DNA from: Spinacia oleracea
Taxonomy: Eukaryota; Streptophyta; Magnoliopsida; Caryophyllales; Amaranthaceae
Assembly: GCF_020520425.1 (NCBI RefSeq)
Contig: NC_079491.1
Location: forward strand, 4,637,143-4,701,142
Length of the DNA: 64,000 nt
Direction: 5' to 3'
The translations under genes were made by a program, and so were the position numbers. Under the pieces are notes generated by a model. The model had not been told where the DNA came from and did not search any database. It saw nothing but the letters and a program-made list of their open reading frames with translations. Each line of letters starts with the position of its first letter. Positions within the stretch are counted from its first letter, which is position 1. Of this stretch, positions 28,498 to 64,000 are shown piece by piece.

Positions 28498-28549
28498 TTA
28501 GGGTGTTGAATCCGGAGGCGGCGAAAATTAGGAAGAGTGAGGAAGAGAG

Positions 28550-35583: not shown

Positions 35584-37129
35584 TATAGAGATAATTTCTT
35601 TTTATTACGTATTGTAGTTCATAATTCAACCTAATTTATATGCTTTTAAAAGTCACAAAACCAAAAACTAAAAACTAACAGTAGTATCAAACGTCCTAAC
35701 GCGGTCCATTCATATCATGAAAGTATATAAGAGTGATATAAGAGTCCCTCAATACTCAATAGTGATTGGAACTTTTTAAATGTATGTGGGAGCTTACGTC
35801 TCAAAGTTACGTGAAATCAATTTTGTAATGGAAAAAGAAAGTGGTCCATTCCTTTATCTTTGTCTCACTTTTTTTTAGCCATAACATAATAATGCCCACA
35901 TATATTCTTAACAAATTTATGCTACCAATGATTTTCTTAACGATCTGGTTTTCAAGCCCATACGAGTACACATTAGTACATTATATGTAAGATAAAAGAA
36001 TCTCGGTCATTTAGACCAGACACATACATTCAAGATAAAAGAGTCTCGACGATTGAACCAGTGAATTGCTTGGTTATAAATCACAAAAAAATTGATATGT
36101 TAAAGTGTGTCAATAGAGTCAAAATAAAAATAGTGCAGTCATTAAAAAAACGGAAGAAGTAAACATTTTATGAATTTAACTTATTTCGCGCTCAAAATCA
36201 AACATCAATTACATCATCCAGTAAAGTCCGATAAATAGTTATTTGGTATCACCAATTTTACCACACTATTTGCATGGTCGCAATTTTATGCTTACGAAAT
36301 GCTAACCGCACAATTGCACAATTTGCACTTCACGTCATCATTCCCTTGTTCATACTTGATGGTTGAGTACTTGAAAATATAAAATGGTCTCAAACCCGAA
36401 TAATAAGGGTCAAGTACATAAAATCTGAATATTCCTCTTATCTTGACGTTGACCATTATGATTCCTTCTGGGACACTCATTTATGAAGTCGAAATCAATA
36501 TTTGAAGAAATATCTTTACCATTTTACCTCTTACCCTAATTGGATATGTTAATTACTTAATTTTATTTACTTAGTAAAAGCTTTTTAAAACACATTCACG
36601 TACCGCTTTTCGCTTCGATCAAAGCTTTATAACTTTTTAGGTAATAATATTTATTGATACGATTTAATCATCATATCGAGTTCTGATTATAAACAATACC
36701 AATGAATCATGAGCACACGAACATTGACACTTGACACTTTAAGCAAATACGAAGTACATAATTCATCGTATGGACCCGATACACCGTAACAACAATAATT
36801 ATCTCGAAATCGGAGCATTATTATTATTGTTAACAAATGTAGTAACAATTGATTAAATTGGTGCTCCATAATCACAATTCAATTCCTTAATTCTTTCCAC
36901 TATCTAAATGATCTTCCTTTTCCATATCAATCTTAATTTAATCACCCCAATCTTGACTTCTAAGCAACAACAAAAACATATCCAATTAGCTCACGTTTTG
37001 GGGGCAACCCATCCATCATATCCCAAACGTTACTATAAATTTGTTCATTATATTTCACATTCAAAACTCATAACTTTGCTCCAAAATCCCATCTTTTTCC
37101 CCTTTCTTTCAAAACTCTATAATTTAGGC
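35584..37129. promoter_or_regulatory. Upstream region of the SCPL20-like gene, copy 1
   Basis: About 1.5 kb of AT-rich DNA without a gene. Because the duplication starts here, this is the whole upstream sequence shared by both SCPL20 copies; beyond it the two copies have different neighbours. GTTACTATAAATTTG near 37,028 (about 100 bp before the ATG) is a candidate TATA box. Confidence 0.4.
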
Positions 37130-40100
37130 ATGGATAATCACCATTTTCATCTTAATTATATCATGAAATCACCATTAATAATGTTGATAATGGTGTTTTT
37201 CCTCTGTTTCATTGTTATTACTGAATCTGCCCCTCAAACTGCTATTGTTACCCAACTTCCTGGCTTTAATGGCACTTTTCCCTCCAAACACTACTCCGGG
37301 TATTCATTTTATTATTGCTTTCAACATAATCTTCCTCCTTTTTTTTACTAATATTTTTATAAGAAATGTTTTCTTTTTGGATTCTTGTTCTGTTTTTGTT
37401 GTTTTAATGGTAAATTTTGAGTATTTTTCTGACATGATTTTTATTATCTTGTTATGAAATTTGAAGGTATGTAACAGTTGATGAAAATCATGGGAAGAAA
37501 ATGTTTTACTACTTTGTTGAATCAGAAAGAAACCCATCACAAGATCCTGTTGTTCTTTGGCTTAATGGAGGACCCGGGTGCTCGAGTTTTGATGGTTTTG
37601 TCTATGAACATGGTATGTACATCTTCCAATTCCAACCAAGTTTTAATGGATTAGTCTAATTAATTTAGTTTTGCTTATTAATTTAGTGAAAGTTTATAGA
37701 GTTGAAGTAGTAATTTGATGTATAATTGTATATATATATATATTTCAGGTCCTTTCAATTTTGAGGCAGCAAAAACAAAGGGAGGCATGCCAAAATTGCA
37801 TCTTAATCCCTACAGTTGGTCCAAGGTCACACAACCTGCCTCGTGTTTTCCCATGAATGGGCATAATTTTGATTACTTCATCATTGTTACAAACTAGACC
37901 TAATCAAATTGCGGGCCGGGTTATGACTTAAATTCTGCCCACTATGTCGGACCGGGTCGGATTGGGCCAAACATTTCTGTCCCAAAACCCGCTATTTGGG
38001 CCAAAAATGGCAGGCTTTACGGGCCATTCGGGCCGGGCCAACTTTACAACTAAAGTTGCAATTTTGAGTTGCCCAAAACCCACGCAAAAATGAAAAAAAA
38101 AAACTGACTGGGCCCAAAAATCGGGCCTAAAAATTCTGCTCGGGGTCCGCTATTTTCGGGCTGGGCCAATTTACAACTAAAATTGCAATTTTAAGTTGCC
38201 CAAAACCCACGCTAAAATAAAAATTTGGCACAGGCCCGGAAATCGGGCCTAAATTTTTTGCTCTAGATTCGCTATTTTTCGGGCTGGGCCAAATTTACAA
38301 CTAAAATTGCAATTTTGAGTTGGCCAAAACTCACGCCAAATAGAAAAAACTGCCCGGGCCCGAAAATCGGGCCTAAAATTATGCTCGGGATCTGCTATTT
38401 TTCGGGCCTTGCCAGCGGGCCAGGCTCATGATAACCAGGTGTGTTACAAACTCATTTTGTTTCAAAATTCCAGGTTTCCAACATGATCTACTTGGACTCA
38501 CCATCAGGAGTTGGATATTCTTACTCACAAAACACAACTGATTTTAATACCGGGGATCTCAAAACCGCATCTGACACTCATACATTCCTGCTCAAGGTTC
38601 ATTTTCATTTATTAATCACTGTAATATAATGAATATGGTTAAATTTTTACTAATTTACTGTACTGATTGTTGTTAATATGGTGCAAACAGTGGTTTGACA
38701 TCTATAAAGAGTTTGCTGCAAACCCATTTTTCATAGCTGGTGAGTCTTATGCTGGGATTTATGTGCCAACACTTGCTTCAGAAGTTGTCAAAGGTAAATT
38801 TTCCTTTAAAAACTTGTAAGAAGATTATGGTTTGATTCGATTTTATTCGATTTTATTCAAAGAGTAATAAACTGAGAGGTATGCAGGACTTGATGCTGGT
38901 TTGAAGCCTGTTATCAATTTGAAGGTAATAATTTAATTTACTGTAACTTTGTAGATTAACTGTGAGTTTGAATCAGATTTTCTAATACTTTAATTACTGT
39001 CTTGATATTCAGGGTTATATGGTAGGAAATGGAGTAACAGATGAAACCTATGATGGAAATGCTTTAGTCCCTTTTGCACATGGGATGGGTTTGATCCCTG
39101 ATGAACTATACCGGGTACAGAAAGTTTTCCTCTTCATTTTTTTTGATTCTTGAACTTTTTTCAGATTTTCTGATGATTCTATTGTAGCATATTTATGTGT
39201 TCTTGGTTTATGAGATGCCAGAATCAAGCTACATGAATTTTTTTGCTGTCGTTTGCATGATTGCATCAATTGTTTACTGATTTGGAAGCAAACCTGTCAA
39301 TTTTTAAAAAGCAGAACATGTTACAGTTATTTAAATATACCTGATCAACATGAGCACGGACGCTAGCGCGGAAAATAACGGGCTTTTTGGGAAGATTTTT
39401 AGGCCCGTTTTGGGGACTGGCCTAGCCTGATTTTAAAAAATTTAGGGTGGGTTTTGGACAACTCAAAATTATAATTTTAGTTATAAATTTGGACCGGCCC
39501 TAAAATGGCCCACAAACCCACTATCTTTGGCCCTAAATAGCAGTTATTTTACCTATGGGCAGAATGTTTAAAGCATGGCCCGGCCCACAATTTGATCAGG
39601 TCTAAGTAGATGTGATCAAAATTCGGGCCGGACCGGGTTTTAACACTAAAATTCATGCCCAAACCCATAAAATTGGCGCGGGCATCGCCGGCCGAAACTT
39701 GGCCGGGCTCGGGTTTTGGTATAAAATGCATATTTTAGGCTACCCAAACCCATATGACAGAATATATAAAATTGGTGTGGGCATTGCCGGCCGAAACTTG
39801 ACCGGGCTCGGGTTTTGGGGTCGGGACCGGGTTGGGTCGGGCTGCGCGGGCCGAGCTATAGTTGATCAGGTCTAGGTCTAAGTTATCATTTTGTTAAGAA
39901 TAACCTTACCAAGCAAACATCCCTTGCGATATATGACAGATTATAGTGTAATTCTGCAGAGGATCGTCACAGAGTGTGAAGGAAACTACTACAATCCAAC
40001 CACTGATGGTTGTGATGCCTTGATTTCAAAAGTTAACCAGGTTAATTATTTCCACTTTCCTAATCATGTAACTTAATTTCATTACATTCTATATTGATTT

Positions 40101-42024
40101 GGGTTAGCTTTCTGCTTAAACATAATGCATTATGTTTAATCACTTGCAGGATGTTGATGGATTGAATATATATGACATTCTGGAACCTTGTTATCACTCC
40201 CCTAACTCAGGTATACAGAACACTACTACTCATCTAAGACTACCTTCAACAATTTCCAGCTTCAAGGCATTAGGAGAAACCGAAAGGCCTCTTCCTGTGA
40301 GGAAAAGGATATTTGGTCGGGCTTGGCCCCTTAGAGCTCCTGTCAGGCCCGGGAGAGTTCCTACCTGGCCCGAAATCGCCAACAGCGTTTCTGTTCCTTG
40401 CATTGTAAGTTACTCGATTACAGTACCTTCAGATTTTTTTGAATGAGCAAGTAGTACTAGACCTGTCAAACGGGTCGGTTGGGTCGGTTTGTAGAAAAAA
40501 TTACTTTCGCGGTCGGGTTAATTCGAGTCGGTCACTTTCGGGTTTGGATTTACAAATGCTTATTCGAGACCAGAAGTTTCGGGTTTGGGTCGAACCGATG
40601 GGTTTAGAGATTCTAAAACGCTATTTATATTTTTATTAATTTGGATAATAAATACGGAGTATACAAAATATGTGTATAAATTAACAAATTTTCATACACA
40701 AGTTTACATTTGGTCAAATTCAACCATAAAATGACATAGTTCAAATCAAAATTATATTACATACAGCAATAGTAACAACATGTTTAATGTGCTTAAAATT
40801 CTTCGTACTCTCATTTATTATTATAAATACAACGATAAAACGAGTTCGGTCGGGTTTTGACCCATTACTTTTCTGGTAGTTTGGGTTCGTATAAAATCGG
40901 GTTACGGGTCACGAAATCTTGTTCAAGACCCACTACTTTGGGTCGGGTTCAGGCCGGATCGGGTCGGGTCGGTTTTTGGCAGGTCTATGAGCAACCACTA
41001 CATGGAGGACTAATAACAATGTGAATGTGTATTTAAACTTATAGAATGATGAAGTTGCAACTTCATGGCTGAATGACAAGGCAGTAAGAAAAGCACTTCA
41101 TGCTGATGAGGTAAGAGTATCACTTTCATCTCTTTTCTTCTGCAGAAAGAAATACAAATTTAGTACAAAGGTTTTCTATATGCCAATCTGATTGTTCTTC
41201 TGATTATTGCTTCAGGAAAGTGTAGCAGGTCCTTGGGAACTGTGCACAGGCAGAATTTCTTTCGACCATGATGCAGGAAGCATGATCAAATACCATAAAG
41301 ATCTCACTTCTCGAGGCTACCGAGTCCTCATATACAGGTAAATCAGTTTCTGATAACCATAAAAATAGACCTGATCAACTACTGACCGGCCCGCTGGCCC
41401 GACCCGAACCAATCTGTAAAAAAATGTGGGTCTGGACAGCCTCAAATACGATTTTTGATATATGTTTTGGGTATACATATTTGTGTTAAAACCTGGCCCG
41501 ACCTGAATTTTGATCACCTCTGCATAAGCATGATTTCACTGATAAATGTGATTTTTGTTCTGATTTTTTTGTTCTGATTTATCAACATATGACAGTGGAG
41601 ACCATGATATGTGTGTTCCATACACCGGGAGTGAGGCATGGACGAAATCTATTGGATACAAAGTAGTAGACGAGTGGAGGCAATGGGTTTGCAATGAACA
41701 AATTTCTGGGTTAGTCTTTACTTTTCAGATTATATGTTCAGCAAATCTATTGTGTAGTAATGAAATGATTAACTGGTATTCACTACATATTTGCAGGTTT
41801 ACACAGGGGTATGAGAAGAATCTCACTTTCCTTACCATAAAGGTAAACAGAATTTAAATTTCTTAGTTCAATCCATGTTTTGGAAAACATGAAATCTTCA
41901 ACATGAGTCTGAATCTGCAACATGAACATTTGTTGTGCAGGGGGCAGGACATACAGTACCAGAATACAAACCGCGAGAAGCACTGTATTTTTATAGCCAG
42001 TTTTTGGCAGGAAAAAGAATATGA
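37130..42024 (+). CDS. SCPL20: Serine carboxypeptidase-like 20 (SCPL20), copy 1 (14 exons, 508 aa)
   Basis: Secreted or vacuolar S10 serine carboxypeptidase. Exons: 37130-37299, 37467-37612, 37749-37825, 38474-38596, 38691-38793, 38887-38924, 39013-39114, 39960-40040, 40150-40404, 41045-41110, 41216-41337, 41596-41709, 41797-41842 and 41941-42024. All are GT-AG and phases join into 509 codons. A signal peptide covers residues 1 to about 34. The substrate loop [10 protein letters not shown] is at 88-97, with catalytic Ser191 (GESYAG), Asp432 (SGDHDMC) and His485 (GAGHTVPE), all intact. Several N-x-T sites are present. Residues about 290-365 are the long linker typical of SCPL20/21. ATG 37130 is preferred over an in-frame ATG 11 codons later because both keep the signal; an upstream in-frame ATG at 36,908 would add an unlikely leader. 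Introns 3, 7, 9 and 11 carry repeats. Confidence 0.93.
37896..38442. mobile_element. AGACCTGATCA-TIR element in SCPL20 intron 3, perfect 10-bp target duplication
   Basis: GTTACAAACT flanks both sides (37,886-37,895 and 38,443-38,452). Starts AGACCTAATCAAATTGC and ends CAGGTGT. Inside is a unit of about 122 bp (GGGCC...TTACAACTAAA...TTGCAATTTT...CGGGCCTAAA) repeated three times. Non-coding. The same element is in copy 2 at about 52,896-53,441. Confidence 0.85.
39337..39873. mobile_element. Two adjacent AGACCTGATCA-type elements in SCPL20 intron 7
   Basis: The first (about 39,337-39,603) starts ATACCTGATCAACATGAGC and ends TTTGATCAGGTCT. The second (about 39,607-39,873) starts AGATGTGATCAAAATTCGGG and ends GTTGATCAGGTCT. 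The second carries a duplicated GCCGGCCGAAACTTG block. It is repeated in copy 2 (about 54,336-54,872). Confidence 0.7.
40451..40986. mobile_element. GGGTCGG-rich TIR element in SCPL20 intron 9
   Basis: AGACCTGTCAAACGGGTCGG near the left end and GGTCGGTTTTTGGCAGGTCT at the right form terminal inverted repeats. ATGAGCAA flanks both sides (40,443-40,450 and 40,987-40,994), an 8-bp duplication. It is a related but distinct family from the AGACCTGATCA elements. Repeated in copy 2 (about 55,450-55,985). Confidence 0.7.
41367..41521. mobile_element. Short AGACCTGATCA-type element in SCPL20 intron 11
   Basis: AGACCTGATCAACTACTG at the left and TTTTGATCACCTCT at the right. Flanks CCATAAAAAT and GCATAAGCAT match at 7 of 10. 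Only about 155 bp, an internally deleted form. Repeated in copy 2 at about 56,366-56,520. Confidence 0.65.
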
Positions 42025-42338
42025 AAATATTTCATGTTTAGAGACTCGAATGTAATTTCATCTGACAAATAAGTTTCTGTAGGATTACAATTTGAAAGAA
42101 ATATACATGGTTATACTTCAGATGCAGCAGACATGCTGATGCATTTGTTTACTTTGCTAGTTTTCTTTGCTGGTATTACATCAGAGACTTAAGACAAGTC
42201 TGCAGTGGCATAGAGAAAGTATGTGATTATGCGATTTCAACAGAAATGGAAAACTGAAAACATAAAAGATAACACACTACGAGGTCAAAAAAATAAATTC
42301 TCAACCCATCTGATAAACCATTTTGACACGTTTAGCGT

Positions 42339-42380
42339 AGACCTGATCAACATGAGCTCGACCAGCTGGTCTGGCCCGAA
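42339..42380. repeat. One-ended fragment of an AGACCTGATCA-type element
   Basis: AGACCTGATCAACATGAGC followed by a CTGGCCCGAATTG scrap, then unrelated sequence. It lies between the convergent SCPL20 and F-box genes. Confidence 0.55.
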
Positions 42381-42691
42381 TTGATTCAAATATGAAACAA
42401 TCAATTGAAAGATTACAAACAGAACAATCAGAATGCTGTGAGGATCAAGGCATTTTTCCATAATAAAAATGATAAAGGCATTCATAAAAGCATATGACAA
42501 ATTAGACTAAAAGTCTCAAAATTCCTGCATTTCTTCATAATTCCTGCATTTTTCCATAATAAAAAGGATCAAGACATTCCTAAAACATACCATATTCCTA
42601 AAACATAACATATTCCTAAAACATAACATATTCCTAAAACAAACACAAGGACTGTCAGAAGACGTACTACACAGCAAATTGCATTTACAAA

Positions 42692-45647
42692 TCAGAGAAG
42701 TCCCTCTCCCAGACACTGATCAAGATCTATTGGTTCCGGAAATGGAAGTTTGGCGGACAAACAAGCTTTTTTCTCATCAAGTTCTTGCTTCACTTTAGCA
42801 CTACGAGCAAGGAACTCTCTTTCCTTTTCATCAATTTGAGCTTTTGACTTGTTAATAGCCATTATAGACTCAATCAGAGGCTTACTTTTATGCAGTGTCA
42901 GAACCCACTCAACAAAAGCAACTAACCAGTCTACCTTTAAGCCTACACATTGAAGGTCATGCAGATTGGATGCGAGTTCCTGAGCTAAGGAATCAGTCAA
43001 TGTCCTCAGTGTAGTCTTTTGGAGAAATATTATGATATTTGCTAGTGATTCTAAGGTAAGGGTTAACATGACTTTGCTGCGCACGGTTTTTTCTCCAATA
43101 AGGTTCCCATGCTTGTTCCAAATCATTTGCAAAGTTGGCAATAGATTGGGCCTGATACCCAGAGATTCTAAACCTTGAAGCCCGATGTTTGGTTCACAAG
43201 CCTGTGAAGCATACAACATTACAAAAAGATAAGAATGTTTCAGTGATGCCTACATAAAATTTTGAAGAAAAAAAACAAGCATCCTTACCAGTACTGAAGA
43301 AATAACAGGTGGAAAGTCCGCGATAGAAACTTTATTTTCTGAGATATCTGGTGCTGAGTGTGAATGGAAATCAAGTCAGAAATCATGCAAGGGAAAGAGA
43401 GTTCAAACTTCAAAGCATTAAGCAAAAATCTGCGAATTCAGACTAAAACACAAGTTACCTTTTTTGTGCTGAATCTCAGAAACAGGCAAATGGGATGAAG
43501 ATTTCCCTTGAGTTGCCGAGGTTGAATGGATTTTAGTGTTCTGTTTCTCAGATTTAGGTGTATTTGAGGGAGCTGAGCCATGAGTTTGTGAAGATGCACC
43601 ATTTTGATTGGTTGCATCTGATTCCATCATTTCATCTTCCTCAGGATTACTTCACAAATATAGGCAGATGAAAGTTCAGATTTCAAGCATTATTCTAATA
43701 AACCATTCAGCAACTACATGTGGCTATGCAGATAAAAATGGTTAGCTACTTATCTCTATCGTACAGGATCATGGTTTAAAATTTTCTGAAACAAAGAAAA
43801 TTTGCCATCTCAAAATAACTGTTTTGTACAGATAATACTGCATATTTGACTTTGATCCCATAGTTTCTCACTGTCGACCTTTTAAGATGACACATCCGGC
43901 ATTTTTTTGGACGAAAAGGTAACACACACTCTAACAAAATTAAACACTTCATCAACCTATACTGTGTACTTAAATCTTGAAACCTTGAGATGCCTTGCAT
44001 AACATACAGATAAGCCACTTTCAACCCTTAAAGTTTCAGCCATAAAATTCAAATTTAATGCCTCAGAATTGTTACTCTCTATCTATTTACAGTATAAGAC
44101 ACAGAACATTAAAGAAGTGGCAGCTAAGAAAATTTGCTGCTCCCTAATGTTCACATTGCACATTTGGAATAAATAAACATCAACAGCAGCAACAACAACA
44201 ACAATAACAAGGTCAATAACAACCAGGTCAACAACAATTCAAACAATCCAGCACAATCTCCATATTATAGGAAACACAAATCATCTAAGCTTTGTTTGGC
44301 TGAGGAAATGTCCTGAACTAAGAAAATAGTTTTAGATGTCCATGTTCAAATTTCTAGTTCATATCACAAGTCAAATCATTGATCCTACAAACATCAGATA
44401 TCCATCATCACAAAAACCATAACTTTGAACTCTAAAGAACTAATTAATATGACCACTATTGATTACCTTTGATAATGTGGCGGAGATGGAGATGATTGAG
44501 CCTGCAAGGCCCATTCCGGCACAGAAAAAAGGCCAGATTTCAGGAAATCTGCAATTGGTTTGAAATCCGCAATAGGCATGAAAATATGTCCTCCTAACCA
44601 GAAAATCTGAATATTTTCTTTAGAAAACTTGGATTCATTAGGTTTACTATAGGGATGGAAGGCGTCATTGGAGAAGACAATGTAGTTGTCAAATCCGAAA
44701 CCAGGGAATTCAGCAGCTGAAACAAAGAAGCTGTAAACTTTCGAAACAAACAACACCATAGGATCATCCCCAAAACTCTTAACCTTAACCCAACTCCATG
44801 ACTTCTTGTTATGAACCTTACACAACTTGAAAACTTTAACCATTTCATTGATCCGCATAATCATAAACAAATCCCCAGATTTTGATGATCCCACCAAACG
44901 TTTCCCCCACCCCTTGTTTACGCAATCCGGCTTAATCACCGGCTTTTCAACTAAGGTTTTAAGTACTGCAAACTGATCAGTAAACATCCTGTACAACTTC
45001 CCAAGTCTATCCAATGCATAAATTACACCCCTAAAACTCAGAATATCATCAAATTTGTCAAGTGAACCATATGATATGTCAAACCATGGAAGTTCCGTTC
45101 CATACTGATACTCCGGCTTAACTGGTGGAGACCCACCTAATTGACCCCCTCTAAATAAAACCAACAAAGAACCATCATCAACCATGGACGGAATACTCCG
45201 ATCCTTGAAAAAAAGCAACACTTTCTCATGATATGAAAGTGCCCTCGAACAATCATTCATTTCCTCTTCATCAGCCATATGGTAATCAACAGAAAGACGA
45301 CGAGGTTGAAACCGATCTAAGGTAAAATTCTCAGGAATATCAAAGAGAGGCTCACCGGAGAGAGGATTGCAGAGTTCGAATTCCCCTTTGGTAATTTCCA
45401 CAGAAGCGACAATCCACGGTGTGCCGGAAACAGGAGGGCGGATGAGATAAACGGAGGAAGAAAACAGAGTTTCGGAACCCATGACGAAAGGCAAGAGGGC
45501 GGAGATAGCGGTGGCTCGCCGCCATTTCTTACAAACTGATCGGAAGTTTTGCACGTCTTTGCGGTTTCCCTTGAGGTGGATGGCGATAGAACGGAGGACT
45601 TCAACGGGAAGTTCCGACCAGATTACTTTCTGGCGAAAATTCCGCAT
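42692..45647 (-). CDS. F-box/DUF295 protein with PEARLI-4/MATH-CC-like C-terminal domain, copy 1 (4 exons, 646 aa)
   Basis: Predicted SCF substrate-recognition subunit. Exons on the minus strand: 44467-45647, 43459-43649, 43289-43347 and 42692-43201; GT-AG borders, and phases join to 647 codons with TGA. The F-box is at residues about 8-46 (VIWSELPVEVLRSIAIHL...FRSVCKKW), followed by a SKIP23-like DUF295 region to about 375. Exon 2 is a Ser/Asn/Gln-rich linker (SNPEEDEMMESDATNQNG). Exon 4 has a domain (LLPTLQMIWNKHGN...ALESLA-like helix...GLKVDWL) ending in a charged coiled coil. The exon 4 pattern resembles the region after MATH in Arabidopsis MATH/coiled-coil proteins and PEARLI-4; that match is from memory. 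The frame is fully intact. It converges with SCPL20. Confidence 0.85.
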
Positions 45648-48586: not shown

Positions 48587-48630
<44 letters not shown>

Positions 48631-48631
48631 T

Positions 48632-48662
<31 letters not shown>

Positions 48663-50286: not shown

Positions 50287-50428
50287 TATGAAATATTTCT
50301 TCATGACTAGGCCAAAAACGAGACGTACAATTTGATTGCATAGCTACTTAATTGTTTTGTTTCCTAATTTATTAGTACCCTGCGCAGTACACATACTGAC
50401 TTACATAGAACACGCAAATAAAAAAACT

Positions 50429-50583: not shown

Positions 50584-52129
50584 TATAGAGATAATTTCTT
50601 TTTATTACGTATTGTAGTTCATAATTCAACCTAATTTATATGCTTTTAAAAGTCACAAAACCAAAAACTAAAAACTAACAGTAGTATCAAACGTCCTAAC
50701 GCGGTCCATTCATATCATGAAAGTATATAAGAGTGATATAAGAGTCCCTCAATACTCAATAGTGATTGGAACTTTTTAAATGTATGTGGGAGCTTACGTC
50801 TCAAAGTTACGTGAAATCAATTTTGTAATGGAAAAAGAAAGTGGTCCATTCCTTTATCTTTGTCTCACTTTTTTTTAGCCATAACATAATAATGCCCACA
50901 TATATTCTTAACAAATTTATGCTACCAATGATTTTCTTAACGATCTGGTTTTCAAGCCCATACGAGTACACATTAGTACATTATATGTAAGATAAAAGAA
51001 TCTCGGTCATTTAGACCAGACACATACATTCAAGATAAAAGAGTCTCGACGATTGAACCAGTGAATTGCTTGGTTATAAATCACAAAAAAATTGATATGT
51101 TAAAGTGTGTCAATAGAGTCAAAATAAAAATAGTGCAGTCATTAAAAAAACGGAAGAAGTAAACATTTTATGAATTTAACTTATTTCGCGCTCAAAATCA
51201 AACATCAATTACATCATCCAGTAAAGTCCGATAAATAGTTATTTGGTATCACCAATTTTACCACACTATTTGCATGGTCGCAATTTTATGCTTACGAAAT
51301 GCTAACCGCACAATTGCACAATTTGCACTTCACGTCATCATTCCCTTGTTCATACTTGATGGTTGAGTACTTGAAAATATAAAATGGTCTCAAACCCGAA
51401 TAATAAGGGTCAAGTACATAAAATCTGAATATTCCTCTTATCTTGACGTTGACCATTATGATTCCTTCTGGGACACTCATTTATGAAGTCGAAATCAATA
51501 TTTGAAGAAATATCTTTACCATTTTACCTCTTACCCTAATTGGATATGTTAATTACTTAATTTTATTTACTTAGTAAAAGCTTTTTAAAACACATTCACG
51601 TACCGCTTTTCGCTTCGATCAAAGCTTTATAACTTTTTAGGTAATAATATTTATTGATACGATTTAATCATCATATCGAGTTCTGATTATAAACAATACC
51701 AATGAATCATGAGCACACGAACATTGACACTTGACACTTTAAGCAAATACGAAGTACATAATTCATCGTATGGACCCGATACACCGTAACAACAATAATT
51801 ATCTCGAAATCGGAGCATTATTATTATTGTTAACAAATGTAGTAACAATTGATTAAATTGGTGCTCCATAATCACAATTCAATTCCTTAATTCTTTCCAC
51901 TATCTAAATGATCTTCCTTTTCCATATCAATCTTAATTTAATCACCCCAATCTTGACTTCTAAGCAACAACAAAAACATATCCAATTAGCTCACGTTTTG
52001 GGGGCAACCCATCCATCATATCCCAAACGTTACTATAAATTTGTTCATTATATTTCACATTCAAAACTCATAACTTTGCTCCAAAATCCCATCTTTTTCC
52101 CCTTTCTTTCAAAACTCTATAATTTAGGC
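50584..52129. promoter_or_regulatory. Upstream region of the SCPL20-like gene, copy 2
   Basis: Same sequence as 35,584-37,129. Here the flanking DNA is the distal end of copy 1, so the second gene may sit in a different regulatory setting beyond 1.5 kb. Confidence 0.4.
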
Positions 52130-55100
52130 ATGGATAATCACCATTTTCATCTTAATTATATCATGAAATCACCATTAATAATGTTGATAATGGTGTTTTT
52201 CCTCTGTTTCATTGTTATTACTGAATCTGCCCCTCAAACTGCTATTGTTACCCAACTTCCTGGCTTTAATGGCACTTTTCCCTCCAAACACTACTCCGGG
52301 TATTCATTTTATTATTGCTTTCAACATAATCTTCCTCCTTTTTTTTACTAATATTTTTATAAGAAATGTTTTCTTTTTGGATTCTTGTTCTGTTTTTGTT
52401 GTTTTAATGGTAAATTTTGAGTATTTTTCTGACATGATTTTTATTATCTTGTTATGAAATTTGAAGGTATGTAACAGTTGATGAAAATCATGGGAAGAAA
52501 ATGTTTTACTACTTTGTTGAATCAGAAAGAAACCCATCACAAGATCCTGTTGTTCTTTGGCTTAATGGAGGACCCGGGTGCTCGAGTTTTGATGGTTTTG
52601 TCTATGAACATGGTATGTACATCTTCCAATTCCAACCAAGTTTTAATGGATTAGTCTAATTAATTTAGTTTTGCTTATTAATTTAGTGAAAGTTTATAGA
52701 GTTGAAGTAGTAATTTGATGTATAATTGTATATATATATATATTTCAGGTCCTTTCAATTTTGAGGCAGCAAAAACAAAGGGAGGCATGCCAAAATTGCA
52801 TCTTAATCCCTACAGTTGGTCCAAGGTCACACAACCTGCCTCGTGTTTTCCCATGAATGGGCATAATTTTGATTACTTCATCATTGTTACAAACTAGACC
52901 TAATCAAATTGCGGGCCGGGTTATGACTTAAATTCTGCCCACTATGTCGGACCGGGTCGGATTGGGCCAAACATTTCTGTCCCAAAACCCGCTATTTGGG
53001 CCAAAAATGGCAGGCTTTACGGGCCATTCGGGCCGGGCCAACTTTACAACTAAAGTTGCAATTTTGAGTTGCCCAAAACCCACGCAAAAATGAAAAAAAA
53101 AACTGACTGGGCCCAAAAATCGGGCCTAAAAATTCTGCTCGGGGTCCGCTATTTTCGGGCTGGGCCAATTTACAACTAAAATTGCAATTTTAAGTTGCCC
53201 AAAACCCACGCTAAAATAAAAATTTGGCACAGGCCCGGAAATCGGGCCTAAATTTTTTGCTCTAGATTCGCTATTTTTCGGGCTGGGCCAAATTTACAAC
53301 TAAAATTGCAATTTTGAGTTGGCCAAAACTCACGCCAAATAGAAAAAACTGCCCGGGCCCGAAAATCGGGCCTAAAATTATGCTCGGGATCTGCTATTTT
53401 TCGGGCCTTGCCAGCGGGCCAGGCTCATGATAACCAGGTGTGTTACAAACTCATTTTGTTTCAAAATTCCAGGTTTCCAACATGATCTACTTGGACTCAC
53501 CATCAGGAGTTGGATATTCTTACTCACAAAACACAACTGATTTTAATACCGGGGATCTCAAAACCGCATCTGACACTCATACATTCCTGCTCAAGGTTCA
53601 TTTTCATTTATTAATCACTGTAATATAATGAATATGGTTAAATTTTTACTAATTTACTGTACTGATTGTTGTTAATATGGTGCAAACAGTGGTTTGACAT
53701 CTATAAAGAGTTTGCTGCAAACCCATTTTTCATAGCTGGTGAGTCTTATGCTGGGATTTATGTGCCAACACTTGCTTCAGAAGTTGTCAAAGGTAAATTT
53801 TCCTTTAAAAACTTGTAAGAAGATTATGGTTTGATTCGATTTTATTCGATTTTATTCAAAGAGTAATAAACTGAGAGGTATGCAGGACTTGATGCTGGTT
53901 TGAAGCCTGTTATCAATTTGAAGGTAATAATTTAATTTACTGTAACTTTGTAGATTAACTGTGAGTTTGAATCAGATTTTCTAATACTTTAATTACTGTC
54001 TTGATATTCAGGGTTATATGGTAGGAAATGGAGTAACAGATGAAACCTATGATGGAAATGCTTTAGTCCCTTTTGCACATGGGATGGGTTTGATCCCTGA
54101 TGAACTATACCGGGTACAGAAAGTTTTCCTCTTCATTTTTTTTGATTCTTGAACTTTTTTCAGATTTTCTGATGATTCTATTGTAGCATATTTATGTGTT
54201 CTTGGTTTATGAGATGCCAGAATCAAGCTACATGAATTTTTTTGCTGTCGTTTGCATGATTGCATCAATTGTTTACTGATTTGGAAGCAAACCTGTCAAT
54301 TTTTAAAAAGCAGAACATGTTACAGTTATTTAAATATACCTGATCAACATGAGCACGGACGCTAGCGCGGAAAATAACGGGCTTTTTGGGAAGATTTTTA
54401 GGCCCGTTTTGGGGACTGGCCTAGCCTGATTTTAAAAAATTTAGGGTGGGTTTTGGACAACTCAAAATTATAATTTTAGTTATAAATTTGGACCGGCCCT
54501 AAAATGGCCCACAAACCCACTATCTTTGGCCCTAAATAGCAGTTATTTTACCTATGGGCAGAATGTTTAAAGCATGGCCCGGCCCACAATTTGATCAGGT
54601 CTAAGTAGATGTGATCAAAATTCGGGCCGGACCGGGTTTTAACACTAAAATTCATGCCCAAACCCATAAAATTGGCGCGGGCATCGCCGGCCGAAACTTG
54701 GCCGGGCTCGGGTTTTGGTATAAAATGCATATTTTAGGCTACCCAAACCCATATGACAGAATATATAAAATTGGTGTGGGCATTGCCGGCCGAAACTTGA
54801 CCGGGCTCGGGTTTTGGGGTCGGGACCGGGTTGGGTCGGGCTGCGCGGGCCGAGCTATAGTTGATCAGGTCTAGGTCTAAGTTATCATTTTGTTAAGAAT
54901 AACCTTACCAAGCAAACATCCCTTGCGATATATGACAGATTATAGTGTAATTCTGCAGAGGATCGTCACAGAGTGTGAAGGAAACTACTACAATCCAACC
55001 ACTGATGGTTGTGATGCCTTGATTTCAAAAGTTAACCAGGTTAATTATTTCCACTTTCCTAATCATGTAACTTAATTTCATTACATTCTATATTGATTTG

Positions 55101-57023
55101 GGTTAGCTTTCTGCTTAAACATAATGCATTATGTTTAATCACTTGCAGGATGTTGATGGATTGAATATATATGACATTCTGGAACCTTGTTATCACTCCC
55201 CTAACTCAGGTATACAGAACACTACTACTCATCTAAGACTACCTTCAACAATTTCCAGCTTCAAGGCATTAGGAGAAACCGAAAGGCCTCTTCCTGTGAG
55301 GAAAAGGATATTTGGTCGGGCTTGGCCCCTTAGAGCTCCTGTCAGGCCCGGGAGAGTTCCTACCTGGCCCGAAATCGCCAACAGCGTTTCTGTTCCTTGC
55401 ATTGTAAGTTACTCGATTACAGTACCTTCAGATTTTTTTGAATGAGCAAGTAGTACTAGACCTGTCAAACGGGTCGGTTGGGTCGGTTTGTAGAAAAAAT
55501 TACTTTCGCGGTCGGGTTAATTCGAGTCGGTCACTTTCGGGTTTGGATTTACAAATGCTTATTCGAGACCAGAAGTTTCGGGTTTGGGTCGAACCGATGG
55601 GTTTAGAGATTCTAAAACGCTATTTATATTTTTATTAATTTGGATAATAAATACGGAGTATACAAAATATGTGTATAAATTAACAAATTTTCATACACAA
55701 GTTTACATTTGGTCAAATTCAACCATAAAATGACATAGTTCAAATCAAAATTATATTACATACAGCAATAGTAACAACATGTTTAATGTGCTTAAAATTC
55801 TTCGTACTCTCATTTATTATTATAAATACAACGATAAAACGAGTTCGGTCGGGTTTTGACCCATTACTTTTCTGGTAGTTTGGGTTCGTATAAAATCGGG
55901 TTACGGGTCACGAAATCTTGTTCAAGACCCACTACTTTGGGTCGGGTTCAGGCCGGATCGGGTCGGGTCGGTTTTTGGCAGGTCTATGAGCAACCACTAC
56001 ATGGAGGACTAATAACAATGTGAATGTGTATTTAAACTTATAGAATGATGAAGTTGCAACTTCATGGCTGAATGACAAGGCAGTAAGAAAAGCACTTCAT
56101 GCTGATGAGGTAAGAGTATCACTTTCATCTCTTTTCTTCTGCAGAAAGAAATACAAATTTAGTACAAAGGTTTTCTATATGCCAATCTGATTGTTCTTCT
56201 GATTATTGCTTCAGGAAAGTGTAGCAGGTCCTTGGGAACTGTGCACAGGCAGAATTTCTTTCGACCATGATGCAGGAAGCATGATCAAATACCATAAAGA
56301 TCTCACTTCTCGAGGCTACCGAGTCCTCATATACAGGTAAATCAGTTTCTGATAACCATAAAAATAGACCTGATCAACTACTGACCGGCCCGCTGGCCCG
56401 ACCCGAACCAATCTGTAAAAAAATGTGGGTCTGGACAGCCTCAAATACGATTTTTGATATATGTTTTGGGTATACATATTTGTGTTAAAACCTGGCCCGA
56501 CCTGAATTTTGATCACCTCTGCATAAGCATGATTTCACTGATAAATGTGATTTTTGTTCTGATTTTTTTGTTCTGATTTATCAACATATGACAGTGGAGA
56601 CCATGATATGTGTGTTCCATACACCGGGAGTGAGGCATGGACGAAATCTATTGGATACAAAGTAGTAGACGAGTGGAGGCAATGGGTTTGCAATGAACAA
56701 ATTTCTGGGTTAGTCTTTACTTTTCAGATTATATGTTCAGCAAATCTATTGTGTAGTAATGAAATGATTAACTGGTATTCACTACATATTTGCAGGTTTA
56801 CACAGGGGTATGAGAAGAATCTCACTTTCCTTACCATAAAGGTAAACAGAATTTAAATTTCTTAGTTCAATCCATGTTTTGGAAAACATGAAATCTTCAA
56901 CATGAGTCTGAATCTGCAACATGAACATTTGTTGTGCAGGGGGCAGGACATACAGTACCAGAATACAAACCGCGAGAAGCACTGTATTTTTATAGCCAGT
57001 TTTTGGCAGGAAAAAGAATATGA
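52130..57023 (+). CDS. SCPL20: Serine carboxypeptidase-like 20 (SCPL20), copy 2 (14 exons, 508 aa)
   Basis: Protein identical to copy 1. Exons: 52130-52299, 52467-52612, 52749-52825, 53473-53595, 53690-53792, 53886-53923, 54012-54113, 54959-55039, 55149-55403, 56044-56109, 56215-56336, 56595-56708, 56796-56841 and 56940-57023. The one base missing relative to copy 1 is in the A-run of intron 3 (53,093-53,102), so it does not touch coding or splice sites. The catalytic triad and substrate loop are intact. The upstream 1.5 kb is also identical, so expression should be near-equal unless distant elements matter. Confidence 0.92.
52896..53441. mobile_element. AGACCTGATCA-TIR element in SCPL20 intron 3, copy 2
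   Basis: Same insertion as in copy 1 with the same flanking GTTACAAACT duplication, so it predates the 15-kb duplication. One A shorter. Confidence 0.82.
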
Positions 57024-57690
57024 AAATATTTCATGTTTAGAGACTCGAATGTAATTTCATCTGACAAATAAGTTTCTGTAGGATTACAATTTGAAAGAAA
57101 TATACATGGTTATACTTCAGATGCAGCAGACATGCTGATGCATTTGTTTACTTTGCTAGTTTTCTTTGCTGGTATTACATCAGAGACTTAAGACAAGTCT
57201 GCAGTGGCATAGAGAAAGTATGTGATTATGCGATTTCAACAGAAATGGAAAACTGAAAACATAAAAGATAACACACTACGAGGTCAAAAAAATAAATTCT
57301 CAACCCATCTGATAAACCATTTTGACACGTTTAGCGTAGACCTGATCAACATGAGCTCGACCAGCTGGTCTGGCCCGAATTGATTCAAATATGAAACAAT
57401 CAATTGAAAGATTACAAACAGAACAATCAGAATGCTGTGAGGATCAAGGCATTTTTCCATAATAAAAATGATAAAGGCATTCATAAAAGCATATGACAAA
57501 TTAGACTAAAAGTCTCAAAATTCCTGCATTTCTTCATAATTCCTGCATTTTTCCATAATAAAAAGGATCAAGACATTCCTAAAACATACCATATTCCTAA
57601 AACATAACATATTCCTAAAACATAACATATTCCTAAAACAAACACAAGGACTGTCAGAAGACGTACTACACAGCAAATTGCATTTACAAA

Positions 57691-60646
57691 TCAGAGAAGT
57701 CCCTCTCCCAGACACTGATCAAGATCTATTGGTTCCGGAAATGGAAGTTTGGCGGACAAACAAGCTTTTTTCTCATCAAGTTCTTGCTTCACTTTAGCAC
57801 TACGAGCAAGGAACTCTCTTTCCTTTTCATCAATTTGAGCTTTTGACTTGTTAATAGCCATTATAGACTCAATCAGAGGCTTACTTTTATGCAGTGTCAG
57901 AACCCACTCAACAAAAGCAACTAACCAGTCTACCTTTAAGCCTACACATTGAAGGTCATGCAGATTGGATGCGAGTTCCTGAGCTAAGGAATCAGTCAAT
58001 GTCCTCAGTGTAGTCTTTTGGAGAAATATTATGATATTTGCTAGTGATTCTAAGGTAAGGGTTAACATGACTTTGCTGCGCACGGTTTTTTCTCCAATAA
58101 GGTTCCCATGCTTGTTCCAAATCATTTGCAAAGTTGGCAATAGATTGGGCCTGATACCCAGAGATTCTAAACCTTGAAGCCCGATGTTTGGTTCACAAGC
58201 CTGTGAAGCATACAACATTACAAAAAGATAAGAATGTTTCAGTGATGCCTACATAAAATTTTGAAGAAAAAAAACAAGCATCCTTACCAGTACTGAAGAA
58301 ATAACAGGTGGAAAGTCCGCGATAGAAACTTTATTTTCTGAGATATCTGGTGCTGAGTGTGAATGGAAATCAAGTCAGAAATCATGCAAGGGAAAGAGAG
58401 TTCAAACTTCAAAGCATTAAGCAAAAATCTGCGAATTCAGACTAAAACACAAGTTACCTTTTTTGTGCTGAATCTCAGAAACAGGCAAATGGGATGAAGA
58501 TTTCCCTTGAGTTGCCGAGGTTGAATGGATTTTAGTGTTCTGTTTCTCAGATTTAGGTGTATTTGAGGGAGCTGAGCCATGAGTTTGTGAAGATGCACCA
58601 TTTTGATTGGTTGCATCTGATTCCATCATTTCATCTTCCTCAGGATTACTTCACAAATATAGGCAGATGAAAGTTCAGATTTCAAGCATTATTCTAATAA
58701 ACCATTCAGCAACTACATGTGGCTATGCAGATAAAAATGGTTAGCTACTTATCTCTATCGTACAGGATCATGGTTTAAAATTTTCTGAAACAAAGAAAAT
58801 TTGCCATCTCAAAATAACTGTTTTGTACAGATAATACTGCATATTTGACTTTGATCCCATAGTTTCTCACTGTCGACCTTTTAAGATGACACATCCGGCA
58901 TTTTTTTGGACGAAAAGGTAACACACACTCTAACAAAATTAAACACTTCATCAACCTATACTGTGTACTTAAATCTTGAAACCTTGAGATGCCTTGCATA
59001 ACATACAGATAAGCCACTTTCAACCCTTAAAGTTTCAGCCATAAAATTCAAATTTAATGCCTCAGAATTGTTACTCTCTATCTATTTACAGTATAAGACA
59101 CAGAACATTAAAGAAGTGGCAGCTAAGAAAATTTGCTGCTCCCTAATGTTCACATTGCACATTTGGAATAAATAAACATCAACAGCAGCAACAACAACAA
59201 CAATAACAAGGTCAATAACAACCAGGTCAACAACAATTCAAACAATCCAGCACAATCTCCATATTATAGGAAACACAAATCATCTAAGCTTTGTTTGGCT
59301 GAGGAAATGTCCTGAACTAAGAAAATAGTTTTAGATGTCCATGTTCAAATTTCTAGTTCATATCACAAGTCAAATCATTGATCCTACAAACATCAGATAT
59401 CCATCATCACAAAAACCATAACTTTGAACTCTAAAGAACTAATTAATATGACCACTATTGATTACCTTTGATAATGTGGCGGAGATGGAGATGATTGAGC
59501 CTGCAAGGCCCATTCCGGCACAGAAAAAAGGCCAGATTTCAGGAAATCTGCAATTGGTTTGAAATCCGCAATAGGCATGAAAATATGTCCTCCTAACCAG
59601 AAAATCTGAATATTTTCTTTAGAAAACTTGGATTCATTAGGTTTACTATAGGGATGGAAGGCGTCATTGGAGAAGACAATGTAGTTGTCAAATCCGAAAC
59701 CAGGGAATTCAGCAGCTGAAACAAAGAAGCTGTAAACTTTCGAAACAAACAACACCATAGGATCATCCCCAAAACTCTTAACCTTAACCCAACTCCATGA
59801 CTTCTTGTTATGAACCTTACACAACTTGAAAACTTTAACCATTTCATTGATCCGCATAATCATAAACAAATCCCCAGATTTTGATGATCCCACCAAACGT
59901 TTCCCCCACCCCTTGTTTACGCAATCCGGCTTAATCACCGGCTTTTCAACTAAGGTTTTAAGTACTGCAAACTGATCAGTAAACATCCTGTACAACTTCC
60001 CAAGTCTATCCAATGCATAAATTACACCCCTAAAACTCAGAATATCATCAAATTTGTCAAGTGAACCATATGATATGTCAAACCATGGAAGTTCCGTTCC
60101 ATACTGATACTCCGGCTTAACTGGTGGAGACCCACCTAATTGACCCCCTCTAAATAAAACCAACAAAGAACCATCATCAACCATGGACGGAATACTCCGA
60201 TCCTTGAAAAAAAGCAACACTTTCTCATGATATGAAAGTGCCCTCGAACAATCATTCATTTCCTCTTCATCAGCCATATGGTAATCAACAGAAAGACGAC
60301 GAGGTTGAAACCGATCTAAGGTAAAATTCTCAGGAATATCAAAGAGAGGCTCACCGGAGAGAGGATTGCAGAGTTCGAATTCCCCTTTGGTAATTTCCAC
60401 AGAAGCGACAATCCACGGTGTGCCGGAAACAGGAGGGCGGATGAGATAAACGGAGGAAGAAAACAGAGTTTCGGAACCCATGACGAAAGGCAAGAGGGCG
60501 GAGATAGCGGTGGCTCGCCGCCATTTCTTACAAACTGATCGGAAGTTTTGCACGTCTTTGCGGTTTCCCTTGAGGTGGATGGCGATAGAACGGAGGACTT
60601 CAACGGGAAGTTCCGACCAGATTACTTTCTGGCGAAAATTCCGCAT
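57691..60646 (-). CDS. F-box/DUF295 protein with PEARLI-4/MATH-CC-like C-terminal domain, copy 2 (4 exons, 646 aa)
   Basis: Identical to the gene at 42,692-45,647. Exons on the minus strand: 59466-60646, 58458-58648, 58288-58346 and 57691-58200. Frame and splice sites are intact. It converges on SCPL20 copy 2. Confidence 0.85.
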
Positions 60647-62631
60647 TTTAGGGTTTCAATCAGTTTTATAAGCTGTATTTGGGGTTTCAATTAGGAAGCA
60701 AAATGGACTTACAAGGTTTTTCTGGAGAGGTTTGCCGATGTAACGGAGGATTTAACCGGGAGCTCCTACCAAATTATATTTTCCGGCGAGAACTCCGCGT
60801 TTTTAGGGTTTTGATTTGGGAGAAAATTGTAGGTGAAAGAGAAGAGGTACTCCGTACTAATCTGCAATAACTTTCCGTTTCAATTGCTTTTTCGTTTAGA
60901 AAAAATACAGTAAAAAAAAAACGGTAACTTTTTCGTTTCAATTGCTTTTTATGTTCCCAATATATTTTTAAACTTTCCCGCGCAATGTTGTAGATTATGT
61001 AGCAAGAATTGGTAATGGGCTCGGCCCTAAATAACCTCATTTGGGCCTTTATCATGTGATGTAGCATGTAAACACAATCTTGTCAATTGCCAAGTCAAAT
61101 TAGTCTCTTAAAATAGCAACATAAAAATAACCTTGTTAATTTCCCTCCAAAGTATTTTAATTGGGCACATAGAATTAGTGGAGGTCTAGTTAGTGACCCG
61201 AACGATTTTCCGGATTATTGGATAATGTGAAGCACGGAGTATATTGTAACTACAGGTGCCAATGACTCTAAAGCTCGAGTTATAATGTCACAAATAGAAT
61301 TAGATATTATGCAATTTAGCTCTAGTGATCATGTCCCATGTTGCGACCATATCTTTTTCAATGTTGGGATGAGACTAAATCAGACCTTGTGTAGAGTCCA
61401 TCAAATCTTGTTGGTGGAGTCCGTATCAGAATTTGATCACTAGTAAAAGCAGGGAAGGAGTTTGGACAAGAAAAAATTATTACCAAACTCATAGAGGTTA
61501 TATAAGCCCTAATATAGCAATACAGGTGTACGTTATTTCAACATAGACTTGATCAAAAGCCAGGCCGGACTGGGTTTGGACTGGGCAACAACCTAAAAAT
61601 CAGCTCAATAAGTCCGATTGCCAGACCGGGTTTGGACTGGGCAACAACCTAAAAATCAGCTCAATAAGTCCGATTGTGCCGAATTTTGGGTTGATTTTAT
61701 GCGCCCAAAATCTGTTGTTTCGGGCTTAAAATAGCGGCATTTTAAGGCTAATTTTGGACGTATCAATTTTATATCTAAATTTGTGGTTTAAAGTTGCCCA
61801 AAATCCCATCCAAAAAATTAGAAGGGATCAGTCCAGGCCCAATTACCTAGCCTAATTTTGCCAAAATCGTTATTTTTGGACCGGGACAATTTTATAACTA
61901 ATTTTGTGTTTTAAGTTGCTTAAAACCCACCCCAAATAGAAAAAATACAGGACGGGCCAGACCCGACAAAACGGGCTTAAAAATTCGCCAAAAACCCGTT
62001 GTTTTGGGGCCGAGGCAGGCTCTAAGTGGATCAGGTCTACTTCGATACCCTCATTTGGAGCTAAATAGCCAATAGGTCAAGTGCTGAAAAACAACTACAG
62101 AAAAATGACACAAGTTGAATGCAAACTATGTCATTAGTTACCTTCCTCAACATTGTACATGACATAAAAAGTTCCTATAGTTTTCTCTTTAATTAGCAGC
62201 AAATGTAGTGTAGATAACATTGCAGCATTTCATTTTCCTCCCTGTTTGAACCAGATCCTACCCAGGCTTACTTGATAATTAAAGATCATTAAATTCTTCT
62301 TGAAACTACACGATCATGTAGTTTTAACACAAACAAAATGATATCTGCTTCAAATAACATACAAAATGATGCTTTGTTAATTTGCCATCAAAGGTGGCAG
62401 AGTATGAGGTTCAGATCAACCTTAGACCATATTGACATCAGTTCTAAGCAAAATAAACTTAATACCAAAATATACTGATCTGAAATCACAGTGCCTGAAA
62501 ATCATCCAGATCAATAATCTTATCAGAACTCAGAAGAAATAATACCAGTAGACAAACGAGTCATCTTCTCCTCTAATTCTCTCCTTTTCTTCGCGCTTCT
62601 TTCCATGAACTCCTTTTCCTCCATGTCAATT
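60647..62631. other. Intergenic between F-box-family genes, copy 2
   Basis: Same content as 45,648-47,632, with the TIR element at about 61,545-62,038. No gene was found. Confidence 0.4.
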
Positions 62632-63585
62632 TCAGCTTTTCTCGATCTTCTTCAGCATCTTTATCCTCTCCATTCTCAGCTTCTTTTCATTATGTTGTGT
62701 CTTTGCCTCCTCAACCATGGGAGCTAACCAGTCCACTTTTAAGCCTACGCGGTTGAGATCATCTAGAATTAATTGTATCTCATCTACTGTCGAATCAGTC
62801 AAGTCCTTTACTTTAGCCCTTTGGAGTGTGATGTTGAGCTTTGCTAATGACTCTAAGGCATAAGCTCGCATTGCCTTGCTACGGACAGAATTTTTACCGA
62901 ATAGGGTACCGTGTTTAGCCCAAATTGTTTCTAATGTTGGGAGGAATTCAGACCTGATATCAACCCCTTCAAAGTTTACAGTTGATGAACCAGTTTTACG
63001 AGTCTGCAACAGGTCGAAAGAGTCAAAGAGTGCAATATTTGAGAATGCTGTAATCTTACTACGCAACTGAAAATAAAAAGCATTCTCGAGAATTAATTAT
63101 GGTTACCTGTTGTACAGTTGAAGGAGTTACAGGTGTGGAATTTGCAATGAAAACTCTCCCTTCTGATAAATTTGGACCTATATACATGAATATAATTAGA
63201 AATCCTTGTATAATTGAGTTAATGACTTGAAAAACACCTTCACAAATACCTAATCTTTCTTCTTCGACATGAAAAATGACTTTTCTGATGTCAATTAAGA
63301 ATCATTAAATGGAAAAAAGTATACGAGTTCATCACTAGTTAGCTAGGGGGTTAATTAGTATTACCTGTACTTCTTCCATTTGGAGTAGGTCTTATTTCAT
63401 CAGAGTGATTTGCTGCACAAGAATGTGGTTGTTCATTGAAAAAACTTGTCCACGCCTCTTCTTCTTCTTCATCCTGCTTGAAATTGGTTGTTCTGTTAAG
63501 TTCACTTGATTCGGAAAACTCCTGACTAGAGGAATCATCCACCACTCCATCTGAAGCTTGCTGGCGGGAAGGGCCTGCCTTTGTC

Positions 63586-63629
<44 letters not shown>

Positions 63630-63630
63630 T

Positions 63631-63661
<31 letters not shown>

Positions 63662-63702
63662 CATCTTCATCATCATCTTCATCATCATCATCATTGCGTT
63701 CA
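62632..63702 (-). pseudogene. F-box-family paralogue 3, 3' exons, copy 2
   Basis: Exons 63365-63702, 63107-63177 and 62632-63003, identical to copy 1 including the C-terminal frameshift. In this copy the expected 5' F-box exon may still exist beyond the window, so this could be the 3' part of a complete though C-terminally shortened gene. Confidence 0.72.
63585..63694. repeat. (ATC/GAT)n trinucleotide repeat, copy 2
   Basis: Same as 48,586-48,695 with no visible change in repeat number. That is notable, since such repeats change length quickly. Confidence 0.9.
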
Positions 63703-64000
63703 CTTCAAAAGCAAACAAACATCCTGTCAGAGCTCTGATGAACAACTATGGAACATATTATTGACTCATAAAGAACAAAACCACTTCATATAATCATATT
63801 GCTATGGTTTAAGCTTAGTAGTAGTAGACATCTATTGTAATTAATAACTTCATTGCTTATCAGACAAGCTTTTTAGCCATATGCAACCATTGAATCACAT
63901 CAACTGTAACATGTACTGTTACAAACTGTACTTTGAAATATGAAAACGAAATTATAGAAACTAGATTAGGACGAGATTATCTCTGTCCTTAGGATAATAT

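What the first reader, a model, noticed from the sequence alone, without database searches (positions are those of the whole stretch)
35584..64000. 15-kb direct tandem duplication, identical apart from one A in a homopolymer
The offset is exactly 15,000 bp up to the A-run at 38,093, then 14,999 bp to the window end. Introns, MITEs and even the GAT microsatellite are unchanged over about 13.4 kb. Either this is an extremely recent duplication that doubles SCPL20 and an F-box gene, or an assembly artefact: a homopolymer-length difference is just what long-read error or two poorly merged haplotypes would leave.
Basis: seen in the sequence. Interest (0 to 1): 0.85.

Follow-up and report, generated by a model that had tools for sequence, protein, structure and literature searches.

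The report
Recent 15-kb tandem duplication in spinach
A 15,000-base stretch carrying about four genes sits twice in a row on a plant chromosome (most likely spinach), and the six odd bases at the seam look like the scar of a known DNA-break repair process, so it is probably a real, very young duplication and not an assembly mistake.

Summary
Sequence fetched beyond the window completes it: copy 1 is 35584-50577 (14,994 bp), then six extra bases AAAGTG (50578-50583), then copy 2, 50584-65576 (14,993 bp). The copies differ only by A11 versus A10. The exact 15,000 period is 14,994 + 6.

Real or artefact? The seam favours real. Both outer breakpoints cut repeat elements that are whole at the outer edges (39 of 39 and 38 of 38 other scored genome matches run across them) and truncated at the seam, so the seam is the new junction. 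Its six bases, with their neighbours, form a perfect 12-bp inverted copy of adjacent sequence: what polymerase-theta-type snap-back end joining leaves, and hard to get from overlapping contigs. There is no N within 112 kb.

The assembly (894 Mb) matches the spinach inbred Monoe-Viroflay by size; if so, unmerged haplotypes are unlikely. A10/A11 may be a sequencing error. The unit carries an SCPL gene, an F-box/KIB gene and two PEARLI-4-type genes, inside a 1-Mb F-box/PEARLI-4 array. No read data were available, so spanning reads and depth remain the decisive test.

The parts
35584..50577 (+). Copy 1 of the duplicated unit, 14,994 bp
50578..50583 (+). Six-base filler AAAGTG at the copy 1/copy 2 junction, absent from both outer junctions
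   Evidence: printed beside both ancestral junctions
50584..64000 (+). Copy 2 as far as the window shows it; it continues to 65576 (C5:4702718), 14,993 bp in all
50559..50586 (+). Perfect 12-bp inverted repeat with a 4-nt loop (GTTA) spanning the junction: the right arm is partly genomic (TAA, 50575-50577), partly filler (50578-50583), partly the start of copy 2 (TAT, 50584-50586)
   Evidence: z -4.83, 0 of 200 shuffles as stable; a 29-base word across the junction occurs once in the genome
35514..35693 (.). Short repeat element of about 180 bp (MITE-like is my guess) cut by the left breakpoint (35583|35584); whole here, truncated at the start of copy 2
   Evidence: 39 of 39 matches other than the two own ones run across the breakpoint; 18 of 18 fetched copies aligned across it
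50428..50577 (.). Truncated half of a repeat element of about 317 bp cut by the right breakpoint; the whole element is at the end of copy 2 (65427-65743, beyond the window)
   Evidence: 38 of 38 matches other than the two own ones run across the breakpoint; 8 of 8 fetched copies aligned across it
38093..38103 (+). A11 run in copy 1, A10 at 53093-53102 in copy 2: the only difference between the copies
36908..41857 (+). Serine carboxypeptidase-like gene (Peptidase_S10 in the frames 37465-37659, 38435-38629, 41564-41857; span approximate, no gene model built); copy 2 at +15,000 up to the A-run, +14,999 after it
42692..43249 (-). PEARLI-4-type exon (PF05278); copy 2 at +14,999
44463..45656 (-). 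F-box / KIB1-4 beta-propeller gene, 397-codon open frame, without stops in both copies; copy 2 at +14,999
47633..48097 (-). Second PEARLI-4-type exon (PF05278), without stops in both copies; copy 2 at +14,999

Best explanation
A genuine, very recent head-to-tail duplication of one 14,994-bp segment. Shown: the two outer edges are the old, undamaged junctions and the middle seam is new; the seam carries a six-base insertion that, with its neighbours, is an inverted copy of the sequence next to it, and then a 3-bp match to the start of copy 2. Inferred mechanism: a broken or replication-born end at the right breakpoint, finishing in ATACACTTTTTAGTTATAA, folded back on itself (TAA pairing with TTA across a four-base loop). 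A polymerase, most likely polymerase theta, copied nine bases (AAAGTGTAT). The new end then let go and annealed through TAT to the other end at 35584, on the sister chromatid or a re-replicated strand, and was sealed. The result is a second copy of about four genes. The A10/A11 difference is either one replication slip since then or a consensus error that short reads could not correct in identical copies.
For: Identity over 14,993 bp but for one A, and exact limits. Both parent repeat elements are whole at the outer edges and truncated at the seam. The filler plus neighbours match an inverted local template of 12 bp; 19 of 20,000 random joins with random six-base fillers did as well. The seam forms a hairpin that 0 of 200 shuffles match. 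The 29-base junction word occurs once in 894 Mb. No N in C5:4617143-4729142; false duplications are most often separated by a gap (PMC9516828, passages). Templated insertions are described as a hallmark of polymerase theta in plants and metazoans (PMC12426944, passages); tandem duplications in worms lacking BRC-1 or BRD-1 are mostly about 10-20 kb and polq-1 knock-out suppresses them (PMC7368036, abstract passage and section 6). The genome has one HTH_61 match and, on the same strand 5-8 kb on, three DNA_pol_A matches, the layout I recall for plant polymerase theta.
Against: No read data: spanning reads and depth were not seen. Only one assembly was available, so presence in other plants is untested. 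The filler is short and the templating test was designed after the junction had been seen; the 3-bp match TAT is weak on its own in AT-rich DNA and was not tested apart. The single difference is of a type typical of long-read consensus error. 8 of 8 aligned copies of the right-hand element read A where this locus reads T just after the breakpoint, so the filler could be five bases. Wild-type worms gave no tandem duplication in 240 generations, so such events are rare without repair defects. The link from seam to enzyme is inference.
Confidence: 0.75

Rival explanations
1. Assembly false duplication (homotype): overlapping contig ends, wrong gap filling or a chimeric read left the same 15 kb twice.
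For: Zero substitutions, one homopolymer difference; a period on the scale of a long read; the matching published assembly was made from PacBio CLR reads with Canu, Arrow and Pilon, and its authors themselves broke five misassembled contigs (PMC8668906, passages). Some false duplications are joined without a gap by wrong gap filling (PMC9516828, passages).
Against: The ends would have to meet with six bases found at neither outer edge that happen to complete an adjacent inverted copy (19 of 20,000); no N in 112 kb; contig N50 of about 23.8 Mb in the matching assembly.
Confidence: 0.12
2. Real duplication, but the circle route: the segment was copied or excised as an extrachromosomal circle closed by templated end joining, and the circle then recombined into the intact locus. 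The final sequence is the same.
For: A circle's closing joint would be identical to the seam seen here (reasoning). Large tandem duplications were found in Arabidopsis ddm1 lines, a background with high circle load (PMC10462705, passages).
Against: Needs two events; that paper found no circles corresponding to its large duplications.
Confidence: 0.05
3. Real duplication by replication template switching (MMBIR/FoSTeS type), the filler being a short extra switch onto the other strand.
For: An inverted template beside the break and a short match at the join fit a template switch too.
Against: No further complexity at the seam; a nine-base copied stretch is in the range reported for end joining (templated insertions generally under 25 bp; PMC12426944, passages).
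Confidence: 0.05
4. Two haplotypes placed in a row.
For: A one-base difference between copies.
Against: [quoted passage not shown] the seam carries sequence found at neither outer edge.
Confidence: 0.02
5. Unequal crossing over between repeats flanking the unit.
For: Both breakpoints lie in repeat elements, and a 29-bp stretch at 86% identity lies near both (35524-35552 and 50545-50573).
Against: That stretch ends 31 bp before the left breakpoint and 4 bp before the right one, out of register with the duplication; the two elements otherwise show no similarity, and the seam is not a hybrid of one repeat but carries filler.
Confidence: 0.01

Closest known systems
[quoted passage not shown]
   Same: 10-20 kb size class, microhomology and occasional insertions at the seam (section 6); here 15 kb, 3-bp match, six-base templated insertion
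   Different: No genetic test here; a plant line; mechanism inferred from one seam
Large tandem duplications in Arabidopsis ddm1 lines (PMC10462705)
   Same: Direct tandem duplication in a plant
   Different: The two sizes in the passages read are 55 and 56 kb, in mutants; those passages describe no templated filler
False homotype duplications in assemblies (PMC9516828)
   Same: Near-identical copies side by side
   Different: Most often have an assembly gap or unsupported sequence between copies; no N here and the seam is templated; read support and depth untested

Membership tests
TMEJ-type tandem duplication | New junction joins two sites without long homology | tested here: met
   different repeat elements, 3-bp match at the join; longest similarity near both breakpoints 29 bp at 86%, out of register
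TMEJ-type tandem duplication | Short insertion copied from sequence beside the break | tested here: met
   12-bp inverted match; 19 of 20,000 random joins reach it (test designed after the pattern was seen)
TMEJ-type tandem duplication | Dependence on polymerase theta | not testable with these tools
   Only the presence of a candidate gene was seen
False (homotype) assembly duplication | Gap or unsupported sequence between copies | tested here: inconclusive
   No N in 112,000 bp; read support not available
False (homotype) assembly duplication | Read depth below the expected level per copy | not testable with these tools
   No reads held
False (heterotype) assembly duplication | Haplotype differences between copies | tested here: not met
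   0 substitutions in 14,993 bp, one homopolymer difference
Non-allelic homologous recombination duplication | Long homology at the two breakpoints | tested here: not met

The most novel reading that the evidence does not exclude
The 1-Mb spinach array of paired F-box/KIB and PEARLI-4 genes is still growing, and this step was driven not by unequal crossing over but by templated end joining of breaks inside short repeat elements, which in this way act as seeds for gene-cluster expansion.
Probability: 0.25. Interest if true: 0.5.

Novelty: new member of a known kind. Interest (0 to 1): 0.35.

Why it matters
It shows how far a suspicious, almost perfect 15-kb duplicate in an assembly can be judged from its seam alone: a templated filler, and parent elements whole at the outer edges, point to biology and not to software. 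It may also catch one of the youngest steps in the growth of a plant F-box gene array, before the copies have diverged, with the repair scar still legible.

Tried and rejected
Unequal crossing over and unmerged haplotypes were considered and rejected (reasons under the rivals). Transposition of the unit was set aside because the copies are adjacent and both edges lie inside other elements (reasoning, no separate test). Self-alignment for terminal inverted repeats did not define the two elements cleanly, so their limits come from the genome copies. The tRNA scan found nothing in the window; the Rfam scan at gathering threshold found one match, outside the unit. A paper search for spinach, tandem duplication and serine carboxypeptidase listed 2 papers, by title neither on this locus; a search for PEARLI-4, F-box and gene cluster (two of three terms) showed 6 of 1,566 papers, by title none on the pairing. 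I make no claim that either is absent from print.

Not obtained: copy number of the SCPL gene elsewhere in the genome (searches did not complete); full gene models; read depth; other spinach assemblies.

No other odds changed.

Full report
Where it is. The window lies in an assembly of 894,210,420 bases in 242 contigs, at C5:4637143-4701142; window position p is C5 position 4637142+p. The size agrees with the spinach inbred line Monoe-Viroflay, reported as about 894.3 Mb, 307 contigs, most of it in six pseudomolecules (PMC8668906, passages); the matches listed in my genome searches all fall on C1 to C6.

The observation. At offset 15,000 the window is identical to itself from 35584 to 38102, and at offset 14,999 from 38094 to 49001, where the second copy meets the window end. 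With the flanks fetched, copy 1 runs 35584-50577 (14,994 bp) and copy 2 runs 50584-65576 (14,993 bp), and one A fewer in an A11 run is the only difference. Between them lie six bases, AAAGTG, that belong to neither copy. The round 15,000 is therefore 14,994 + 6, a coincidence. There is no N in the 112,000 bases from C5:4617143 to 4729142. In a search with the first 1,001 bases of the unit, only the two copies match in full; the other 40 of 42 matches are about 60-105 bases long (40 of 158 candidates were scored).

Which junction is new. The left edge (35583|35584) lies inside a repeat element at about 35514-35693. Of 41 matches in the genome, two are the own copies; the other 39 of 39 run across the breakpoint (40 of 205 candidates scored), and 18 of 18 fetched copies align across it. 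The right edge lies inside another element (50428-50577 in copy 1, whole at 65427-65743 at the end of copy 2). Of 40 matches, two are own; 38 of 38 others run across the breakpoint (40 of 751 candidates scored), and 8 of 8 fetched copies align across it. The two outer edges are thus the old arrangement, and the seam between the copies is new. Similarity between the sequences upstream of the two copies is limited to 29 bp at 86%, out of register, so recombination between repeats is not a good account.

The seam. The right-hand end reads ...ATACACTTTTTAGTTATAA, then comes AAAGTG, then copy 2 begins TATAGAG. The stretch TAAAAAGTGTAT (end of copy 1, filler, start of copy 2) is the exact reverse complement of ATACACTTTTTA four bases upstream. 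In 20,000 random joins with random six-base fillers, 19 reached a templated match of 12 or more. This test allowed direct or inverted templates within 50 bases of either break, but it was designed after the pattern had been seen. As single-stranded DNA the region folds with z = -4.83, and 0 of 200 shuffles fold as well. The 29-base junction word occurs once in the genome. One caveat: 8 of 8 aligned relatives of the right-hand element have A where this locus has T directly after the breakpoint. If the locus once had A, the filler is five bases; the reading does not change.

How it probably arose. This is what is expected when a resected 3' end snaps back, is extended for nine bases on itself, then dissociates and anneals through three bases (TAT) to the other end. 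Templated insertions primed by minimal pairing are described as a hallmark of polymerase theta in plants and metazoans, up to about 35% in A. thaliana (PMC12426944, passages). Worms lacking BRC-1 or BRD-1 accumulate tandem duplications, mostly about 10-20 kb, with microhomology and occasional insertions; polq-1 knock-out suppresses them; wild type had none in 240 generations (PMC7368036, abstract passage and section 6). This genome has one HTH_61 match at C1:123418109-123418375 and three of its eight DNA_pol_A matches at C1:123410573-123413143 on the same strand, the domain order I recall for plant polymerase theta (TEBICHI). The step from seam to enzyme is inference. A circle that later recombined in, or replication template switching, would leave the same or a similar seam.

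Artefact or not. False duplications in assemblies are most often separated by a gap, sometimes joined by sequence without read support, and show low depth (PMC9516828, passages). There is no gap here; the read criteria could not be tested. An overlap of contig ends would not be expected to add six bases that complete an inverted copy of the sequence next door. [quoted passage not shown] the same paper reports five misassembled contigs that had to be broken, so the assembly was not free of error. The A10/A11 difference is weak evidence either way: in identical copies short reads map ambiguously, so a long-read homopolymer error can survive polishing (general knowledge).

Age. No substitution in 14,993 bp gives a 95% upper bound of 0.0002 per site, or under about 14,300 years at 7e-9 per site per year (the rate is recalled).

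Content. I gave Pfam 10 of the 61 open frames listed; four had no match. The rest show a serine carboxypeptidase-like gene on the + strand (Peptidase_S10 in three frames; E 2.8e-24, 9.7e-12, 3.9e-8), and on the - strand an F-box/KIB1-4 gene with a 397-codon open frame (KIB1-4 E 4.5e-17; F-box-like just over its cut-off) and two PEARLI-4-type exons (E 2.4e-12, 2.7e-15). Both breakpoints lie in repeats outside these frames, so the frames are present whole in both copies; no gene model was built. From the open frame I judge that about 1.5 kb separate the left breakpoint from the likely SCPL start (inference).

Setting. The F-box protein has 73 matches in the genome, 47 of them (my count of the rows; 26 elsewhere) at C5:4.66-5.67 Mb. 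The PEARLI-4 exon has 29, 28 of them at C5:4.67-5.61 Mb. Of 40 merged F-box loci in the array, 21 have a PEARLI-4 match on the same strand within 5 kb downstream, against a mean of 3.5 and a maximum of 12 in 2,000 random placements. The counts include both copies of the duplication, and uniform placement ignores local clustering, so the control is loose. The one PEARLI-4 match outside the array, on C6 near 137.85 Mb, also lies about 1.5 kb downstream of an F-box match on the same strand. So the duplication adds one more module to an old array of paired genes.

Verdict. A real, very young tandem duplication with a repair scar is the best reading (0.75). It is a new example of a known kind. Reads across the seam would settle it.

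Noticed in passing
C5:4.66-5.67 Mb of G000; in the window 42692-48097 and copy 2: F-box/KIB1-4 genes and PEARLI-4-type genes are interleaved: 21 of 40 F-box loci have a same-strand PEARLI-4 match within 5 kb downstream (random mean 3.5, maximum 12), and a lone pair in the same order sits on C6 near 137.85 Mb.
   Followed up: partly
window 5167-5313 (-): snoRNA snoR143 (Rfam RF01432, 69.4 bits, full model), outside the duplication.
   Followed up: no
window 27810-28306: About 71 copies of a 7-base TAATTAT-type tandem repeat.
   Followed up: no
window 38027-38407 and 46769-46983: Three-copy tandem of a 124-bp GC-rich unit between two SCPL exon frames; part of it is about 70% like the element cut by the right breakpoint, and the A-run that differs lies in it.
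   Followed up: partly
window coordinates 28530-33598 against 75272-83003: Older, diverged direct repeats (67-82% identity, up to about 1.2 kb) on both sides of the duplication, as expected in a gene array.
   Followed up: no
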